From: Solirubrobacteraceae bacterium | Lineage (GTDB): Bacteria; Actinomycetota; Thermoleophilia; Solirubrobacterales; Solirubrobacteraceae | Length of the DNA stretch: 64,000 bases | Assembly (NCBI GenBank): GCA_030447505.1 | Contig: JAUJOT010000004.1 | Span: 331,271-395,270, forward strand | Direction: 5' to 3' | Notes under the pieces: generated by a model | What the model was told of the DNA's origin: nothing | The model's input: only the letters and a program-made list of their open reading frames with translations | Database searches by the model: none | Made by a program: the position numbers and the translations under genes | Shown here: piece after piece, positions 13,637 to 33,027 of the stretch | How the letters are laid out: each line of letters starts with the position of its first letter | Position numbering within the stretch: position 1 is the first letter of the stretch

Positions 13637-13710
<74 letters not shown>

Positions 13711-19210: not shown

Positions 19211-20059
19211 CTATGTATAAGCGGATCGACCGCTGATTTCGAGATGGGCGCCAGCGTCGAAGCTCGCGGCGACGAGCTGCAGGTTTGTGGTGCCGGGCGC
19301 CAGCGCGAACCATCGCGTCGTCGCCGGGTCGAGCATGTTCATGGCCGGCGTGCGGACACCGGACAGCACGCGGGTGATAGTGCGCGCCGACAGGTCGACC
19401 TCGATGTACTCGCCGTCCGACACGACGCCTGTCAGCGCGATGCGCCGGCCGTCCGGGTGAACTACGGTCGGGTTAGTCGCGGCGCCGTAGATGCGCAGCA
19501 GCGGGCGCGTCGGCGCATTGCCGGCGTTCGTGAACGCGGCGATGCCGCCGCCCGACGCCGCGAACACGTCCGGGAAGACGTCGGGGAACACGTCGCCGCC
19601 GCCGCCGCCGGACAACGCGTTACCGTAGGCGGTAGTCAGCGTCTGCGAGTAGGCCGCGGGGTCCGCGGCGGCCAGCACGGCGCCGTAGCGCACGATGCCG
19701 GCGGCCTCTGAAAGCGCCGGCTCGAGGGCGCTGGCGAGCTTCACGGTGCGCTGCAACGCCAGGCCGGTCAGACCCTCCGTCCAGGTCAGCAGGCCGGGCC
19801 GATCGAGCGTCGCCAGAAACGCACCGGACACGGCGCGGAACTCCGCGATCGCCTGCTCAACAGTGCCGAACGTTTCACCGGCGACGGTGATGAGCGATTC
19901 GTCGCGGTAGCGCGTCTCGTCGATCGAGCCGTCTGCGGTCGGGCGTGGGCGCACGCTGCGGCGCACGGGCGAGATGCCGACGAGTCCGGTCACGCTAACG
20001 ACGGCGCGGTTAGCCGTCTCATGCAGCACCGTGTTGTCGACGGCGAGCGCTGAGAGCAT
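19211..20059 (-). CDS. Distal tail protein-like phage tail component
   Basis: A 282-aa protein immediately downstream of the tape measure, the slot of distal tail (Dit-like) proteins. Residues 1-60 are beta-rich with SVRPRPTADGSIDETRYRDE; the C-terminal half has TNPTVVHPDGRRIALTGVVSDGEYIEVDLSARTIT and a final carbohydrate-module-like domain ending LQLVAASFDAGAHLEIS. A DVFPDVFPDVF triple repeat near residue 156 marks a linker. Function assigned mainly by position. Confidence 0.6.
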   Translation of the reverse strand: MLSALAVDNTVLHETANRAVVSVTGLVGISPVRRSVRPRPTADGSIDETRYRDESLITVAGETFGTVEQAIAEFRAVSGAFLATLDRPGLLTWTEGLTGLALQRTVKLASALEPALSEAAGIVRYGAVLAAADPAAYSQTLTTAYGNALSGGGGGDVFPDVFPDVFAASGGGIAAFTNAGNAPTRPLLRIYGAATNPTVVHPDGRRIALTGVVSDGEYIEVDLSARTITRVLSGVRTPAMNMLDPATTRWFALAPGTTNLQLVAASFDAGAHLEISGRSAYT

Positions 20060-21315
20060 TACGCGCTACCGTGGGCCAGTCGGTAGGCCAGCGTTTCGCC
20101 CATGACGCGCGCGGCGCGCTGCGAGCCGACCGGCCCGTGGAAATGCTGGACGACGCTGCCACCCGAGCTGGCCGCCATCGCGCCGGTCTGGCGCGCCGTG
20201 TGGACGTACGCGCCGCCGGGCAGGCTGACCAGCTCCGGGCCCTCCTCGCCGACGAGCGTGAGGCCGCCATGCGAGTAGCCGCCGGCCGCCTTGCGGTCGA
20301 TCAGGCCCGTGAGGCGCCCCAGCGCCTTTGCGCCGGGGATCTTGCCGATGATGTTCACGACGGCGCTGGCCGCGCGATACACGTCGTTCAGGACGCCGAT
20401 GATGTTGCGCAGCGGCGGAATCAGCGTGGCGTTGACGACCTTCGCGGCGCGCGTGAAGGCCGGCACCAGGTTGTCACCGACGAGCTCCGCAATGCCCTTG
20501 ACGATCCGCGCGAACTTGCCGCCCGAGCCCGTGCCGTCCGTCATGCCCTCCACAAAGGCGGTGATCTTTGGGACGACCTTGTTCACCACGGGTAGTAGCG
20601 CTTTGCCGATCTTCTCTTCGAGGTTGCCGATGGCGATCGCGAAGTCCTTGCTGGACGACTTGCCGGCCGCTGCCGATCCACCGAATTCCTTGCCGAGCTC
20701 GCGGAGAATGATCTTCTGAGCGCCGGCCGTGTCGCCGGCCTTCACCATCGTCTTGATCTGCTCGCGTTGCTGATCGGTGAACTGCACGCCGACGCGCGAT
20801 AGGGCGCTGATTCCCTTGATCGGGTCGTTCAGCGCCTTGCCGAGCTGGACGGCCGCCTTTGGCATCGCGACGCCGGTAGCCGCGCTCATGTCGGCCAATG
20901 TGTGCGTAGCGCGGTTGAAGATGTCGTTACCCTTGCCAACCTCGTTACGAACGTTGGTGAACGTCAGCAGCATATTGGCGCCGGACTTCACCACCTCGTC
21001 GTCAACGCTGCCCTTCTTCGAAATCGCGTTGGAGAGCTGATCGACCTGCTTTGCGGTGACGTTCGCGGTGCCGCCCGTCGAGCGGATCACGGCGTCGGTC
21101 TGGCGCGACACGCGGTTGGATTCCTCGGCCGCCTTCACGAAGCGCGCGCCCGCGGCGACGGCGACCCCCAGGCCGGCCGCGACGGGCGCGCCGACCTTCG
21201 CCAGCTTGCTCATGGTTCCGCCGAACTTGCTTGACGAGCTGTCAGCGTCGCCCAGCGCGCGCTTGAGCTTGCTCGCGTCGCCGACGATCTCAACTTCGAT
21301 GATCCGGCGACTCAT
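20059..21315 (-). CDS. Phage tail tape measure protein
   Basis: A 418-aa protein from ATG 21315. It sets tail length and travels through the tube. Residues 1-60 (IIEVEIVGDASKLKRALGDADSSS, LAKVGAPVAAGLGVAVAAG) are the characteristic tape measure start with a hydrophobic segment; then long amphipathic helices; the C-terminus (GGYSHGGLTLVGEEGPELVSLPGGAYVHTARQT) is the classic tape measure motif. At roughly 1.5 angstrom per residue the tail would be about 60 nm, short for a siphophage. The start overlaps the zinc-ribbon gene (ATGA). Confidence 0.9.
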   Translation of the reverse strand: MSRRIIEVEIVGDASKLKRALGDADSSSSKFGGTMSKLAKVGAPVAAGLGVAVAAGARFVKAAEESNRVSRQTDAVIRSTGGTANVTAKQVDQLSNAISKKGSVDDEVVKSGANMLLTFTNVRNEVGKGNDIFNRATHTLADMSAATGVAMPKAAVQLGKALNDPIKGISALSRVGVQFTDQQREQIKTMVKAGDTAGAQKIILRELGKEFGGSAAAGKSSSKDFAIAIGNLEEKIGKALLPVVNKVVPKITAFVEGMTDGTGSGGKFARIVKGIAELVGDNLVPAFTRAAKVVNATLIPPLRNIIGVLNDVYRAASAVVNIIGKIPGAKALGRLTGLIDRKAAGGYSHGGLTLVGEEGPELVSLPGGAYVHTARQTGAMAASSGGSVVQHFHGPVGSQRAARVMGETLAYRLAHGSA

Positions 21316-21638
21316 GCCGCCACCCCCGGCGCTGGTCGACCGCACTTCAGGCAGCGCGGCGCGCCGTCCTCGTCGTCGAGGATGGGCGCCGAGCGCCGGC
21401 ACGAGCATGCCGCGGCGAGGACAGGCGGTGGCGACGCCGCATCGTCTCGCGCGCAGCAGCCGCAGGAACGGCTGTCGCCCGACGTCAGGCTGGTGCCGAT
21501 CACGACGCGCGCCGTGCCGCAGTCGCACACACACGACCATTGCGCCTGCCTCTTGCCGTCTGCCCGCGCACGAGCCGGCGCGGAGCCCAGCACGGTCCAA
21601 CGACCGAAGCGCTGCCCTGTCAGCCTCTGACGACTCAT
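21312..21638 (-). CDS. Zinc-ribbon / AP2-like phage protein between tail chaperone and tape measure
   Basis: A 108-aa protein. Residues 1-65 (LTGQRFGRWTVLGSA, WSCVCDCGTARVV, SGDSRSCGC) match the small DNA-binding domain often fused to phage HNH homing endonucleases, here without any HNH part. A second cysteine cluster CSCRRSAP...RCLKCGRP ends the protein. It overlaps the chaperone extension stop at one end and the tape measure start at the other (ATGA both times), so it is built into the tail operon. A nuclease remnant or a domesticated regulator are both possible. Confidence 0.65.
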   Translation of the reverse strand: MSRQRLTGQRFGRWTVLGSAPARARADGKRQAQWSCVCDCGTARVVIGTSLTSGDSRSCGCCARDDAASPPPVLAAACSCRRSAPILDDEDGAPRCLKCGRPAPGVAA

Positions 21639-21790
21639 CGCGACAGCTCGCGCAGATATTCAGACATGGTGTTCAGCTCTTCCGCGGTCAGCTCTTCCAT
21701 GTGCCACGGGTGCAGGCCAAAGTGAGCGGCGAGCGTCGGCGTCCACAGCTCACGCGGGTCATCGCCTACTCGCCACCCGTGGCTGCGTCG
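21635..21790 (-). CDS. Tail assembly chaperone C-terminal (T) extension made by -1 frameshift
   Basis: In the -1 frame after the slippery site the sequence is open for 51 codons, begins RRSHGWRVGDDPREL and continues WTPTLAAHFGLHPWHMEEL to a TGA at 21635. HFGL-P-W followed by an amphipathic helix ending MSEYLREL is the usual pattern of the T part of gpG-T chaperones, which bind tape measure and tail tube during assembly. No ribosome site or good start precedes this frame, supporting expression as a fusion with 21766-22062. Confidence 0.8.
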   Translation of the reverse strand, partial: RRSHGWRVGDDPRELWTPTLAAHFGLHPWHMEELTAEELNTMSEYLRELSR

Positions 21791-22062
21791 TTTGGGTCTT
21801 CGCTCACGGGCTCGTCATCGTCGTCGATGTCGTCCAAGGCGATGTCGTCGACGGTGTTCATGAGCCGCGCGTGTTCCCAGTCGGGGTGCGTGCGCTTCAG
21901 CGCCAGGTAGGCGAATCCGGCGACGACGTGCGGGTTACCGCGCTGCTCGGCGAGCGTGGTCATGTCGGTTACGCCGAAGTGCGTCGCGAGCAGTCGCATG
22001 TCGCCGAGCGTCAGCCGGCCGATGCTGTGACGCTCGCCTGCGATCGTGATGGTGGCTTCCAT
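21766..22062 (-). CDS. Tail assembly chaperone G part
   Basis: A 98-aa protein positioned between tail completion/tube genes and the tape measure. It begins MEATITIAGERHSIGRLTLGDMRLL and ends in an acidic tail (DDIALDDIDDDDEPVSEDPN), as usual for gpG. The last 11 codons contain the slippery heptamer; unshifted ribosomes stop at 21766, shifted ones make the G-T fusion ending at 21635. Confidence 0.8.
   Translation of the reverse strand: MEATITIAGERHSIGRLTLGDMRLLATHFGVTDMTTLAEQRGNPHVVAGFAYLALKRTHPDWEHARLMNTVDDIALDDIDDDDEPVSEDPNDAATGGE
21790..21796 (-). promoter_or_regulatory. Programmed -1 frameshift slippery site C CCA AAC
   Basis: The heptamer CCCAAAC on the minus strand fits X XXY YYZ exactly in register with the G-frame codons CCA AAC. 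Eight codons later the zero frame stops; the -1 frame is open through the T domain. The heptamer type is one of the common slip sites for phage tail chaperones. Confidence 0.85.
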
Positions 22063-22079: not shown

Positions 22080-22496
22080 TTACGTGTGTATTCCGGCGTC
22101 GAGCCGGTCCAGGATCTGCTCGAGCTCGCGGTTGACGCGCGGGCGAGCGTCGGCGACAGCCTTCGTCATGTAGCCCGACGCGCTCGCGCGCGTGATGACG
22201 GCGCCCTTACCGACGCGCCCGCCGCGGTCCTGCACGTAGGCGTGCTCGGCGTTGGAGTAGACGGACACGCCGCGCTGATTGACCGAGATGCGCAGCGACG
22301 CCGCGAGCGGCTTCGTGCTGGAGCGCTTGGGGCGCGGGCCGACGGGCGCGTTGGACTTCGCGTCGGCGAGCACGGTCTTGCCGAGCGTGCGTAGGTCGCG
22401 CTTGAGATCGCGCGCGGCCTCGCCGCCGGCCTTGCGCATGCTGGATTGAAGCTCGCGCAGGCCCTTCACTCGCACGCTGTCGTCGGTGAGCGCCAC
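22080..22496 (-). CDS. HK97 gp10-like tail/neck completion protein
   Basis: A 138-aa protein of the HK97-gp10 family: VKGLRELQSSMRKAGGEAARDLKRDL near residues 10-35, DAKSNAPVGP, a beta segment (LAASLRISVNQRGVSVYSN) and a helical C-terminus. The family joins the filled head to the tail. It overlaps nothing but is only 2 bases from the tail tube gene upstream. Confidence 0.75.
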   Translation of the reverse strand: MALTDDSVRVKGLRELQSSMRKAGGEAARDLKRDLRTLGKTVLADAKSNAPVGPRPKRSSTKPLAASLRISVNQRGVSVYSNAEHAYVQDRGGRVGKGAVITRASASGYMTKAVADARPRVNRELEQILDRLDAGIHT

Positions 22497-22498
22497 GG

Positions 22499-23488
22499 CT
22501 ACGGAGCGGCGTCCGTATTAACGACGGTGACGCTGAGCGGCCCGTCGGCGCTGAGCGTGTCGACGACTACGAAGTCGAGGTCGACGGGGATGAGGCCGAG
22601 GCTGTCGACTACGGGGGTCTTGCCGTCGAAGCGGACGGCCGGCATGAGCACGTCCACGCTGTGCGGGATCGCGCCCTCGATGATCGGCCCGGTCAGCGTC
22701 ACCTGCAGGCTGGCCTGCGTGTTGTCCGTGAAGCGGTTGTAGGCCGCGAGGTCGGGGAACGCCAGCGTGAGTGATCCCTTCATCTCGCGCAGCTTGTCGC
22801 CCTCGAGCTGCTCGCGCTTGCGGCCCGGCGCCGAGCTACGCATGTAGTAGCGGTCCACGGTCAGCCCGTTGTCGACGTTGAGGCGGATCGACTTGCAGTC
22901 GACCTCGGTGCCGGCGATCCGTACGACGGACTGCGTACCGAAGTAGTCCGCGAGGCCGGTCGGATAGCTGGCCGCAGCGAGCGGCGTGGTGGTCGTGGCG
23001 CTGATCGCGTCCAGCGTCAGCGTCAGGCCCGCGAAGTCGTTTTCCTTGACCTCCAGGGACCATTTGTCGATCTTGCAGCCCGAGAACGTCTTGGCGCGCG
23101 CCGTGCCCGTGTCGTCGTTCATGCCGACCTGCACGGTCAGCGCCTTACCGTCGAGCTGGCCGACCGTGCACTTGTGCTGACGCGCAAGCACGCCGCCGGC
23201 CGGCGTCGTGGTGACGACGTTGCCGAGCGCGTGCTTGAACCAGACGGCCTGCCCCTTTGTCTGCAAGGTGAGGTCCAGTGCGCCGCCTGGCTTTTCGCGG
23301 CCAACGGCGTAGTTGTTTGCGCCCAGCACGCGGCGCCCCGTGCGCAGGCCGCTGTGCTCCACACGGTCGATGTCGTGGATGAGCGTTTCGCGGTCGAACT
23401 CGCCGAAGCGGTTCGGGGTCACCGCCGTCCCCGGCGTGACTTCCTCGGCGATCCCGAGCTGTGCGTTGATGCCGCCGGCGACGGGCAT
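22499..23488 (-). CDS. Major tail tube protein
   Basis: A 329-aa protein with the siphophage tail-tube pattern: N-terminal INAQLGIAEEVTPGTAV-PNRFGEF (residues 7-30), central KIDKWSLEVKENDFAGLTLTLDAIS and a C-terminal immunoglobulin-like part. It polymerises into the tube around the tape measure. Position between the tail terminator and the chaperone genes agrees. Confidence 0.85.
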   Translation of the reverse strand: MPVAGGINAQLGIAEEVTPGTAVTPNRFGEFDRETLIHDIDRVEHSGLRTGRRVLGANNYAVGREKPGGALDLTLQTKGQAVWFKHALGNVVTTTPAGGVLARQHKCTVGQLDGKALTVQVGMNDDTGTARAKTFSGCKIDKWSLEVKENDFAGLTLTLDAISATTTTPLAAASYPTGLADYFGTQSVVRIAGTEVDCKSIRLNVDNGLTVDRYYMRSSAPGRKREQLEGDKLREMKGSLTLAFPDLAAYNRFTDNTQASLQVTLTGPIIEGAIPHSVDVLMPAVRFDGKTPVVDSLGLIPVDLDFVVVDTLSADGPLSVTVVNTDAAP

Positions 23489-24159: not shown

Positions 24160-25014
24160 CTAGGCCACCATCCGGCCCTTGCGGATGCCGTAGTCCTCGA
24201 TGACGGCGTTGGCCTCGGGGACGTCGAAGAGCGCGCCCTTGACGCCGGCCGTCACGAAGTACTGGGCGCTGCCGTCGCTGTTTGTGGTGGTCGTCGCACG
24301 GTCGGAGATGTTCGTGTCCACGAGCCAGCGCTTCGCCAGCAGCAGCGCGGCGTGCGCGACGCGCGCCGGCACGCGGTCATATCCGGCGGTGCCTGCTATG
24401 ACGATGCCGCGCGGGTCGGCCGCCCAGCCCAGCTCGCGGTAGACGCGCCCGTCGGCGAGCAGCTGCGCGTCAGTGACCGTCGTGGCGTTGATCGTCACGG
24501 CCATAAGCGACCGCGGCCGCGCCGTGCGCAGCCGCACGTACTGGCCGCGGGCGCCGTCCAGTGTCTCCGTGAAGTAGTGCGGGGTGAAGCGGACGTTGGC
24601 GGCATGCTCGATCGCGTCAGATGCCATGTCGCGCGCCGCGAGAATCGCAGCGTCGGGGTACTTGATGGGGTCCTTCAGCACGCCGCCGTTGGGACCGGGC
24701 AGCATGCGCGCGTCGGCGAGCGTGAAGAACACGTCGCCGACGACCTCGAGGACGTCGACGAAGCTCTGAAGCTGACCGCCGATCGTCGCCTTCCAAGTGA
24801 CCGTCAGGACGTCCAGCGTCGCGGTCTGCGCAGGGGTCAGCGTGAACGTGACGACGCCGACGCCGGCGTCGGTCGCAGCAGCGTCGGTGACGAGCGCCGT
24901 GCCGTTGGCGCGCGTGATGGTGACCGTCGCGGCGTCCGGCGTCGGGTTGGTCGGCACGCCGTTCTCGTAGAACGTGTGCGTCAGCGTGGCGCTGCGGCCG
25001 GCGATCACTCGCAT
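24160..25014 (-). CDS. Head-tail connector with N-terminal Ig-like domain
   Basis: A 284-aa protein. Residues about 1-95 form a beta sandwich (SATLTHTFYENGVPTNPTPDAATVTIT) of Ig-like type. Residues about 95-284 (FFTLADARML...AARDMASDAIEHAANVRF, LLLAKRWLVDTN) resemble gp6-type head-tail adaptors. The combination is a fused decoration/adaptor protein. Its start overlaps the 3' end of the repeat protein gene. Confidence 0.65.
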   Translation of the reverse strand: MRVIAGRSATLTHTFYENGVPTNPTPDAATVTITRANGTALVTDAAATDAGVGVVTFTLTPAQTATLDVLTVTWKATIGGQLQSFVDVLEVVGDVFFTLADARMLPGPNGGVLKDPIKYPDAAILAARDMASDAIEHAANVRFTPHYFTETLDGARGQYVRLRTARPRSLMAVTINATTVTDAQLLADGRVYRELGWAADPRGIVIAGTAGYDRVPARVAHAALLLAKRWLVDTNISDRATTTTNSDGSAQYFVTAGVKGALFDVPEANAVIEDYGIRKGRMVA

Positions 25015-25520
25015 GTCGTCATCCCCTCGCTGAAGCGCGCCGTGCCGTGACGGGCGCCGCCGCTGCCCTTGACGTCCGCGAGTCGCGAAGCGCCCTCCAG
25101 CGCGCCGACCGCGAGCAGGGCAACGGCGGCGACGCCGGCCGTCACGATCGCGCCGCCACCCGACAGCAGCAGGGCGAGCTGAGCGCCCTTGCGAGTCGAC
25201 GTATCGAACAGGCCGCCGCCAGCGCCGAGCAACACCTGCGCCGAGCGCGCGCCCTTGCGCTGTGTGGTCGTGAGCGTCCCGCCGCCCGTAACTGCCGGCA
25301 CGGCGGACGCGGCCTTGCGCGCGGCGACTGTAGGCGCTCCGCCGCCTGCAATGACCTGCGCCGCGCGAGCGCCCTTACGGCCGGCCGTCAGGCTGGCTCC
25401 GCCGCCAGCAACGACCTGCGCCGAGCGCCCACCCTTTCGCGTAGTCGTGACCACGTCGCCAGTGCCTGACAGCACAGTCGCGTGATCGACGTTCGGTCCA
25501 AGCAGCGGAGGAATAGCCAT
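25005..25520 (-). CDS. Phage protein with five tandem ~20-residue glycine-rich repeats
   Basis: A 171-aa protein. Residues about 20-125 are five tandem units, each of the pattern T-x-RKGARSAQV-hh-GGG followed by a short hydrophobic-threonine spacer; units 1, 2 and 4 keep RKGxRxAQV almost exactly, unit 3 is diverged. The region after 125 is a hydrophobic stretch (VTAGVAAVALLAVGAL) then a basic tail. It lies among capsid-connector genes. A beta-solenoid or peptidoglycan/glycan-facing module is conceivable but no family is recognised. Confidence 0.6.
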   Translation of the reverse strand: MAIPPLLGPNVDHATVLSGTGDVVTTTRKGGRSAQVVAGGGASLTAGRKGARAAQVIAGGGAPTVAARKAASAVPAVTGGGTLTTTQRKGARSAQVLLGAGGGLFDTSTRKGAQLALLLSGGGAIVTAGVAAVALLAVGALEGASRLADVKGSGGARHGTARFSEGMTTCE

Positions 25521-26394: not shown

Positions 26395-28428
26395 CTAGAC
26401 GGCGCGGACGTTGAGCGTCCGGAAGGCCTGCGCGTTGATGACGCCCGAACCCGAGCGCCAATGGGCCATCACGCCGCGCTGGCCGGTCGGCCTTCCGGTG
26501 GCCGGATCGAACAGGTTCTGGATGTACTCGACCTGCAGGCCGATCCGGTCGACGATGACGAAGCTCGCGAAGTCCCCTTCGATGAGGATCTTCGAGTTCG
26601 CCGCGACGGAGTTCACCATGTCGGTCACCTGGTACGCCGGGATGCCGAGCGGCGTCATGCTGACGCGCGCCTCGGTCCCGGTCGCGACGCCGAGCTGAGC
26701 GTTCGGGCCGTACAGCGTGTTGCCGTTGGTCGTGTCGAACGCGCGGATCCGGCCGAGGATGCCGCGGTTGCCGATGATCCGTGCGTTGGCCTGGTAGCGC
26801 GACGGCAGCGCGTTGTCGAGCGTGTCGAGGTCACCGCGGGCGAACGCGCCGATGCCGGCCGTGTCCACCGTGACGGTGGCGCCCGTGACGACGCCCGCAG
26901 GCTCGCCCGTGCCAGCACCGAGGACGAACTTGTTTGCTTCCAGCGTGTCCTTCGCGTCGCTGATAAGGTCGCCGAGGTCGCTGAGCAGCGAGCCGTTGTA
27001 GTCCTCTCCGACCTCGTAGCTGAAGGGCACGAACGCGCGTGCCGGGAACGTCGAGATCTCGGGCTGAGCGAACGTCGGCGCGTCATCCGACACGACCGAT
27101 GCCTCGGCGTCGTAGCTGGCGACGACCGCGCCGACCGTGATGCCGCGCCACTTGCCCGTGCCGACGATCTGGACGATCTTCGAGATGCCGCGCAGCGGAT
27201 TGATCGCCAGGTTGCCGGTCTTGACCAGTGACGGGTCCAGGACGTACGGCAGGGTCGCGAATCCGCCCGCCGCACCGGTGAGCGACATCGCACGCAGCTC
27301 GTCGGTCGTGCGCGCGTCACCGCGGCCCGTGACGAGCTTCGCGAAACCCGAGCGGTACGCCGGCGAGCCCGTCAGCAGGATATGCGCGCCGTAGCCCGCC
27401 GGGTCGGCCTCGATGAGACCCTCCAGGCGCGAGCGCTGCTGATCGCCCAGTCCGCTGATCTCGACGGCGCGCAGCGCACGCTCGCGCAGCTCACGGTCCA
27501 CGCCGCCGCCGAACGCGGCCGAGCGGATCGAGCTGACGTCGAAGATGTCCTCGCCGCGCGCGACGTTCGAGCGCCTGATCTGCGGGACGGTGCGCTCGTG
27601 CTCGACGTGCTCGGGCTTGCCGGCGATCTCGTCGAGCATCGCCTGCCGGGAGCGAAGCTCGTCGGTCAGCTCGGTGTTCGCGGCGAGCTGCGAGCGCAGC
27701 TCCTCGACCTCGGTCTTCGCCTCGGCCGAGAACGCGCGCCCCTCGTACTCGCTGGCGATCTCCTGAATGCGACTGCGGAGCCCAGCCGCCTCGGCGACCA
27801 GCTCCTCGACGGACTTGGGCATGACGTGTCGGTTTCCTTCCGTGGATGGCGCCGGCCGGGACGGCTCGGCGGGTGGCGTTGCGTCGATGCTCCGCAGCGA
27901 CGCGGTTGACCCGGCGTAAGCCGGGATGCTCGTGGGACCCAGCTCGACGACGTTCGCACGGGTCACGGTGACCTCGGGCACGCCTGCCGGGTTGTGCGTG
28001 GACTTGCCCGGGCGACGGTTGATCGTCTGGCCACCCTCGGGCACCGTGAAGCGAAAGCTCGATCCGTAGAGGCCGGCGCGCAGCCCGGGCAGCAACTCGT
28101 CGACGTAGGGCGCGTCGAGCAGCTCAGCTTCGTACGCGGCGCCCGTGCCATCGTCGGTGAGGCTGCGCAGCGTCGCGATCGGCTTCAGCCCGATCGTGGG
28201 GTCCATGCCGTGCTCGGCCAACACCTTGATGTCGGTGGCGGCGCGGATGCTGTCGTCCCATGAGCCGGGCGCGAAGCGCTCCAGAAACGCGCCGCCGGCG
28301 ATCGACGTCCACGCGTTCCAACGGACGGCGTAGCCATGCAGGGTGCGGCCCTCAGCGGGCGCCTTGACGGGAACTCCGACCGTGCGGGTCTGGAGGCCGG
28401 CGTTGATGTCGAGCGCGTCGTCAGGCAT
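26395..28428 (-). CDS. Fused prohead protease and major capsid protein
   Basis: A 677-aa single frame. Residues 1-190 are an HK97-type prohead protease: LHGYAVRWNAW, catalytic His73 in LAEHGMD and Ser123/124 in GLYGSSFRF. Residues about 203-677 are an HK97-fold capsid protein: a delta domain of coiled coil (VEELVAEAAGLRSRIQEIASEYE), then GFATLPYVLDPSLV, the scaffold loop and VDRIGLQVEYIQNLFDPATGRPTG at the end. In most phages these are separate genes. An internal ATG at 27822 with GGAAGG upstream would make capsid protein alone. Confidence 0.9.
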   Translation of the reverse strand: MPDDALDINAGLQTRTVGVPVKAPAEGRTLHGYAVRWNAWTSIAGGAFLERFAPGSWDDSIRAATDIKVLAEHGMDPTIGLKPIATLRSLTDDGTGAAYEAELLDAPYVDELLPGLRAGLYGSSFRFTVPEGGQTINRRPGKSTHNPAGVPEVTVTRANVVELGPTSIPAYAGSTASLRSIDATPPAEPSRPAPSTEGNRHVMPKSVEELVAEAAGLRSRIQEIASEYEGRAFSAEAKTEVEELRSQLAANTELTDELRSRQAMLDEIAGKPEHVEHERTVPQIRRSNVARGEDIFDVSSIRSAAFGGGVDRELRERALRAVEISGLGDQQRSRLEGLIEADPAGYGAHILLTGSPAYRSGFAKLVTGRGDARTTDELRAMSLTGAAGGFATLPYVLDPSLVKTGNLAINPLRGISKIVQIVGTGKWRGITVGAVVASYDAEASVVSDDAPTFAQPEISTFPARAFVPFSYEVGEDYNGSLLSDLGDLISDAKDTLEANKFVLGAGTGEPAGVVTGATVTVDTAGIGAFARGDLDTLDNALPSRYQANARIIGNRGILGRIRAFDTTNGNTLYGPNAQLGVATGTEARVSMTPLGIPAYQVTDMVNSVAANSKILIEGDFASFVIVDRIGLQVEYIQNLFDPATGRPTGQRGVMAHWRSGSGVINAQAFRTLNVRAV

Positions 28429-32980: not shown

Positions 32981-33027
32981 TTCCATGGTAAGGAAGGGGT
33001 CATCGGTTCGAGTCCGATGGAGGGCTT
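32981..33027 (+). repeat. attR: 47-bp direct repeat of tRNA-Thr 3' part
   Basis: Perfect copy of 13664-13710. Sequence to its left is prophage, to its right is a second integrase cassette, so this site is also the candidate left border of that element. Confidence 0.95.

What the first reader, a model, noticed from the sequence alone, without database searches (positions are those of the whole stretch)
21635..22062. Clear programmed -1 frameshift in the tail assembly chaperone
Seen: CCCAAAC in exact register eight codons before the G-frame stop; the -1 frame is open for 51 codons with an HFGL-P-W motif and ends overlapping the next ATG. Known: this G/G-T organisation is conserved in long-tailed phages. 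It supports a functional structural module, since decay would quickly close the frame.
Basis: partly seen in the sequence, partly recalled or inferred. Interest (0 to 1): 0.6.

Follow-up and report, generated by a model that had tools for sequence, protein, structure and literature searches.

The report
Frameshifted tail-assembly chaperone of a prophage
A small prophage in a soil actinobacterium appears to use a standard ribosomal slip, CCCAAAC, to make a long and a short form of its tail-assembly chaperone; this is ordinary for long-tailed phages, although most of its relatives carry a different, unusual slip sequence at the same place.

Summary
Gene G (98 codons, minus strand 22062-21766) holds CCCAAAC (21796-21790) in exact X_XXY_YYZ register. 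The stop is the eighth codon after AAC. A -1 shift adds 51 codons (HFGLHPW motif) and ends in an ATGA overlap at 21638. The T frame has no ATG/GTG/TTG start before the motif. Gene order (major tail protein, HK97-gp10-like, G/GT, tape measure) matches phiC31, whose homologue is annotated as ribosomal slippage. A Solirubrobacteraceae MAG (53% identical GT) keeps the same in-register heptamer, and the T frame is under purifying selection. So this is very probably a genuine -1 programmed frameshift making G and GT, a new member of a known kind.

Corrections: the open frame alone proves little (53% of such stretches in this GC-rich window are open); no conserved stimulatory RNA structure was found; the overlapping ATG starts a 108-codon zinc-ribbon-like ORF, not the tape measure.

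Beyond the finding: 32 of 37 T loci kept, and all 7 phiC31-group phages examined, carry GGACCCT(A/T)C or a close variant at the aligned position; the window, its relative and one other carry CCCAAA. Slip chemistry seems to have been exchanged at a fixed place. Frameshifting itself is inferred, not measured.

The parts
21766..22062 (-). Gene G: tail-assembly chaperone, zero-frame product, 98 aa
   Evidence: ORF; 51% identical to the G of L063; 4 of 16 members of the G alignment, not the window's own, match phrog_15555 'tail assembly chaperone'; profile match to the phiC31-group G, probability 82%
21790..21796 (-). CCCAAAC slippery heptamer, C_CCA_AAC
   Evidence: Register checked; same heptamer in register in L005/L022/L063
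21635..21790 (-). T part, read in the -1 frame (51 codons plus TGA)
   Evidence: aligned with 21 other T sequences, Pro and Trp of the motif invariant; pS 0.51, pN 0.33 against the relative
21635..21638 (-). ATGA overlap of the T stop with the next ORF's start
21312..21638 (-). 108-aa zinc-ribbon/HNH-accessory-like ORF between T and the tape measure gene; absent in the relative
   Evidence: phrog_374 HNH endonuclease E=2e-17, profile positions 196-253; in L005 the tape measure start follows T directly
20059..21312 (-). Tape measure protein, 417 aa
   Evidence: Pfam TMP_2 E=2e-10; phrog_27166 E=4e-24
22080..22496 (-). HK97-gp10-like tail completion protein
   Evidence: PF04883 E=9e-7; phrog_5 E=2e-13
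22499..23488 (-). Major tail tube protein
   Evidence: PF18906 E=9e-31; 23-27% identical to the major tail proteins of phiC31-group phages

Best explanation
The locus is the G/GT tail-assembly chaperone of a siphovirus-like prophage. Most ribosomes finish G at the TAG. A minority slip back one base on C_CCA_AAC (tRNA-Pro from CCA to CCC, tRNA-Asn from AAC to AAA), pass the G stop and add the T domain, giving GT of 142 residues. By analogy with lambda, G coats the tape measure protein and T recruits the tail tube protein. Shown here: register, frame, gene order, conservation, absence of a T start in the window, and selection on T. Inferred: that slippage happens, its efficiency, and the assembly role.
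For: In-register CCCAAAC, the only canonical heptamer in the overlap. Same heptamer at the aligned place in a relative 53% identical in GT. T lies in the -1 frame of G in all 16 loci whose G proteins were aligned together. Gene order matches phiC31 and Lilbooboo, whose homologues are annotated as joined or slippage genes. No ATG/GTG/TTG in the T frame before the motif in the window; 30 of 44 T rows have none. pN is below pS in T in 10 of 11 pairs, the window-relative pair included. The in-register heptamer class is rare, 5 in 16,245. A review passage states that C_CCA_AAG is highly shift-prone in E. coli and that G_GGA_AAC is the shift site of a haloarchaeal virus's g-t gene (PMC5009743, passages).
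Against: No experiment. C_CCA_AAC itself was not found in a phage frameshift context in the paper library. No conserved stimulatory RNA structure: mean z -0.57 for 60 nt and -0.58 for 90 nt over 35 loci; downstream z in the window runs from -0.55 to -2.42 depending on the stretch chosen. The window's own G matches no Pfam or PHROG chaperone family, and the fold searches were inconclusive. The position-by-position test of the window-relative T pair alone is not significant (p = 0.10).
Confidence: 0.93

Rival explanations
1. T is translated separately, by re-initiation after the G stop or from a non-standard start such as the CTG of ELWTP.
For: Re-initiation is common where genes overlap (general knowledge). 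In 14 of 44 T rows a TTG, GTG or ATG lies in the T frame before the motif. RemusLoopin and Sebastisaurus are annotated with separate T genes. L055 has T in the +1 frame with a GTG.
Against: The window has no ATG/GTG/TTG in T before the motif. The Leu before WTP is encoded by different synonymous codons in different loci, so no start is conserved there (sequences). RemusLoopin and Sebastisaurus keep the same GGACCCTACC at the same distance (-19) from the G stop as the other 5 phages.
Confidence: 0.04
2. A -1 shift does occur, but one codon earlier (A_GAC_CCA, as the relatives' G_GAC_CCT would suggest) rather than on C_CCA_AAC.
For: In the relatives the conserved block is GGACCCT(A/T)C, centred one codon upstream, and most have no canonical heptamer in register there.
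Against: In the window the P-site re-pairing GAC to AGA would be poor, while C_CCA_AAC re-pairs canonically; the AAAC is shared with the relative L063.
Confidence: 0.1
3. Chance: a GC-rich open frame beside a chance heptamer, with no function.
For: 53% of 51-codon -1 stretches are open.
Against: T protein sequence, motif, -1 relation and heptamer are conserved in the relative, and the T family is found in dozens of contigs.
Confidence: 0.01

Closest known systems
phiC31/phiBT1/Vash/Lilbooboo-type G/GT (phiC31 gp41/gp42)
   Same: Gene order major tail protein, gp40/HK97-gp10-like, G/GT, tape measure; T in the -1 frame; slip position at the homologous Asp-Pro
   Different: The phages have GGACCCTACC and no canonical in-register heptamer there; the window has CCCAAAC. 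G protein similarity is only at profile level.
Lambda gpG/gpGT (role read in passages of PMC5009743)
   Same: -1 shift near the 3' end of G; T added as a C-terminal domain; upstream of the tape measure gene
   Different: No sequence comparison with lambda was made; the lambda site is recalled as GGGAAAG.
G/GT of the Solirubrobacteraceae MAG element (L005/L022/L063)
   Same: 53% identical GT, same CCCAAAC, 51-codon T
   Different: The tape measure gene follows T directly, with no zinc-ribbon ORF between, and is 628 aa, not 417

Membership tests
Frameshifted G/GT tail-assembly chaperones of long-tailed phages | G lies between the tail tube and tape measure genes | tested here: met
   one gp10-like gene sits between tube and G, as in phiC31, and one extra ORF between T and tape measure
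Frameshifted G/GT tail-assembly chaperones of long-tailed phages | T overlaps the 3' end of G in a shifted frame and has no own start | tested here: met
Frameshifted G/GT tail-assembly chaperones of long-tailed phages | Slippery sequence in register in the overlap | tested here: met
   C_CCA_AAC
Frameshifted G/GT tail-assembly chaperones of long-tailed phages | Arrangement conserved in homologues | tested here: met
Frameshifted G/GT tail-assembly chaperones of long-tailed phages | Sequence relation to annotated chaperones | tested here: inconclusive
   Window G: none in Pfam/PHROGs. 4 of 16 members of the G alignment match phrog_15555. Profile-profile with the phiC31 group 82% probability
Frameshifted G/GT tail-assembly chaperones of long-tailed phages | Chaperone fold | tested here: inconclusive
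   Model pLDDT 70.8, pTM 0.55; no match with E <= 0.001; best PDB Z 2.5
Frameshifted G/GT tail-assembly chaperones of long-tailed phages | Both G and GT are made, in unequal amounts, and are needed for tails | not testable with these tools
   Needs expression data
phiC31-type shift site GGACCCTAC | GGACCCT(A/T)C at the Asp-Pro of G | tested here: not met
   Window has AGACCCAAAC

The most novel reading that the evidence does not exclude
GGACCCT(A/T)C is a widespread, non-canonical -1 shift site of the chaperone gene in phiC31-like and related phages (Pro-tRNA re-pairing from CCU to CCC), and the window's lineage swapped it for canonical CCCAAAC at the same codon, so shift chemistry is replaceable while shift position is kept. 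In L038 and L041 the T frame opens at the GGA itself, which confines the shift to about 16 nt without any canonical heptamer.
Probability: 0.55. Interest if true: 0.45.

Novelty: new member of a known kind. Interest (0 to 1): 0.25.

Why it matters
For the window: it lets GT be annotated correctly where gene callers would miss T, and supports a coherent siphovirus tail module. More widely: shift sites that scanners of canonical motifs may not recognise (GGACCCT(A/T)C) lie at a conserved place in a phage group that includes phiC31, and a lineage with the canonical site offers a natural comparison of the two chemistries in one gene family.

Tried and rejected
Open frame as evidence of function: rejected, half of such frames are open by chance. 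Downstream stimulatory hairpin: an 11-bp stem can be drawn, but z depends on the stretch and no clear excess is seen over 35 loci. Fold of G: no convincing match to a solved structure or BFVD model; phiC31 Gp42 appears at rank 30 of BFVD with E=2.0, which proves nothing. PDB sequence search with the G profile: nothing meaningful. tblastn of the GT fusion and of two relatives' T parts against 50,697 phage records: no match. Scan of IMG/VR with the two-sequence GT alignment A1: 107 pattern matches, none confirmed. First genome-contig scan with the tail tube protein: 38 pattern matches, none confirmed. Literature: GGACCCT with frameshift (10 papers, listing only; titles and abstract openings show no phage recoding) and CCCAAAC with frameshift and phage (1 paper, unrelated by its title) gave nothing relevant; 'ribosomal slippage' with phiC31 and tail gave 0 papers; Xu et al. 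2004 is not held. Sycamore, described as similar to Lomovskayavirus, is said in print to have a Mu-like site with one change (PMC8407750, passage); I did not fetch its sequence.

Rows dropped before counts: of 44 T rows, 7 were left out of the 37: L029, L034, L045 and L022 (same contigs as others), L053 (same T as L018), L055 (+1 relation) and L060 (not clearly a chaperone). In the remaining 37 the -1 relation was imposed by how I chose G; the independent test is the both-frame listing together with G homology for 16 loci. The site in the 35 was found with a pattern (CCC followed by T[AT]C or AAA), so conservation of those columns is partly by selection; 2 of 37 (L061, L018) had no such site. 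L017's site may be chance. Of 7 stretches fetched, L016, L019, L020 and L021 gave no T that I could recognise or were cut from view and were not used. Many of the 37 are close to one another (34 distinct site contexts among 42 rows), so they are not independent.

Full report
What is there. On the minus strand, ORF 22062-21766 (98 codons) contains CCCAAAC at 21796-21790 with its first C at codon position 3, that is GAC_CCA_AAC; the TAG stop is the eighth codon after AAC. In the -1 frame 51 sense codons follow, with HFGLHPW, and end at TGA 21637-21635 inside the ATGA that starts the next ORF at 21638. The T frame is open for 59 codons stop to stop and has no ATG, GTG or TTG before the motif. The predicted GT fusion is 142 residues.

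Is it more than chance? The heptamer as a string is not rare (4 seen, 2.25 expected). In register it is: 0 of 16,245 codon registers in 59 composition-chosen ORFs of at least 100 codons (G itself, 98 codons, is not among them), and 5 of 16,245 for the class XXX(AAA or TTT)N, giving about 0.004 for the overlap.

Surroundings. Downstream of a major tail tube gene (22499-23488, PF18906) and an HK97-gp10-like gene (22080-22496, PF04883) come G and T, then a 108-aa ORF, then a 417-aa tape measure gene. The tail tube protein finds 11 phage records, all phiC31-like Streptomyces phages, at 23-27% identity. The G profile of 16 sequences matches the G profile of six phiC31-group phages with 82% probability.

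Relatives. Among 61 related genomes only one besides the window's own has a G homologue. Its contig length (49,489) is that of record JAUYGN010000099.1, a Solirubrobacteraceae MAG. Its GT is 53% identical, with CCCAAAC in the same register and a 51-codon T. Scans of IMG/VR and GTDB contigs brought further T loci. In all 16 loci whose G proteins were aligned together, T is in the -1 frame of G. Of 44 T rows, 30 have no ATG/GTG/TTG in the T frame before the motif. T is under purifying selection: pN is below pS in 10 of 11 pairs; the exception has 17 codons. For the window-relative pair pS is 0.51 and pN 0.33 over 42 codons; the simpler position test alone is not significant (p = 0.10).

The slip site in relatives. 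Seven of the 44 rows were dropped as duplicates or special cases. Of the 37 left, 35 have an in-register CCC followed by TAC, TTC or AAA in the overlap; L061 and L018 do not. With the 7 phiC31-group phages there are 42 sites: GGACCCTACG 21, GGACCCTACC 9 (including all 7 phages), GGACCCTTCG 5, four variants once each, and CCCAAA three times (window, L063, L057). So 32 of the 37 loci and 7 of 7 phages have the TAC/TTC type, 3 of 37 the AAA type. In L038 and L041 the T frame opens at the GGA itself, so the shift must lie within about 16 nt that hold no canonical heptamer. RemusLoopin and Sebastisaurus are annotated with separate chaperone genes, but have the same site at the same distance from the G stop. 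My reading, inferred: the shift position is old and fixed at an Asp-Pro of G; most relatives slip on G_GAC_CCT (Pro-tRNA re-pairing from CCU to CCC), while the window's lineage has canonical C_CCA_AAC there. The direction of the exchange is not established; no tree was built. [quoted passage not shown] their definitions are in a supplement that I did not see, so I cannot say whether GGACCCT is covered.

Against. No stimulatory RNA structure is conserved. The window's own G has no family match, and its predicted fold is of middling confidence with no convincing neighbour. L055, a distant contig, has T in the +1 frame relative to G with a GTG start possible: either another shift mode, a separate gene or an assembly error. 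Nothing here measures frameshifting.

How it works. Most ribosomes make G; some slip at C_CCA_AAC and make GT. The review passage read for lambda gives a 30:1 ratio of the two products, with G and GT binding the tape measure and T recruiting the tube protein (PMC5009743, passages); this role is carried over by analogy.

Verdict. A very probably genuine and ordinary programmed -1 frameshift, well supported by comparison; new member of a known kind. The more interesting part is the difference of slip chemistry at a fixed place in the family, which is testable with reporters.

Element. The genes lie in an element between 47-bp direct repeats, one of them the 3' end of a tRNA-Thr gene: 19,317 bp. 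The relative's element lies between repeats that also start in a tRNA-Thr gene, 19,303 bp apart. The relative has a replication-initiation-like gene. No lysis gene was recognised among the proteins scanned from either element, but not every ORF was scanned.

Noticed in passing
window 13664-13710 and 32981-33027: 47-bp direct repeats, the first being the 3' end of tRNA-Thr(ggt) (13637-13709), bound a compact 19,317-bp prophage with integrase, excisionase-like, head, tail and terminase genes but no recognised lysis or replication gene. A relative in the same genus has an element of 19,303 bp at another tRNA-Thr.
   Followed up: partly
window 21312-21638 (-): Zinc-ribbon/HNH-accessory-like ORF between T and the tape measure gene; ATGAGTCG recurs at both of its ends and both junctions are ATGA overlaps. 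Absent in the relative.
   Followed up: partly
L055:1280-1775: Distant chaperone homologue with T in the +1 frame relative to G and a possible GTG start.
   Followed up: partly
L067 (RemusLoopin), L068 (Sebastisaurus), L064 (phiBT1): Chaperone annotated as two separate genes (RemusLoopin, Sebastisaurus) or with no T gene shown (phiBT1), although the GGACCCTACC shift site of the group is present; likely annotation gaps.
   Followed up: partly
window 20059-21312 (-) versus L022: Tape measure is 417 aa here and 628 aa in the relative, although the two elements differ by only 14 bp in length.
   Followed up: no
window 26395-28428 (-): Capsid maturation protease and major capsid protein are fused in one 677-aa ORF.
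   Followed up: no
window 25005-25520 (-): 171-aa ORF built of repeated 'RKGARxAQVxxGGG'-like units, with no PHROG match at E <= 0.01.
   Followed up: no
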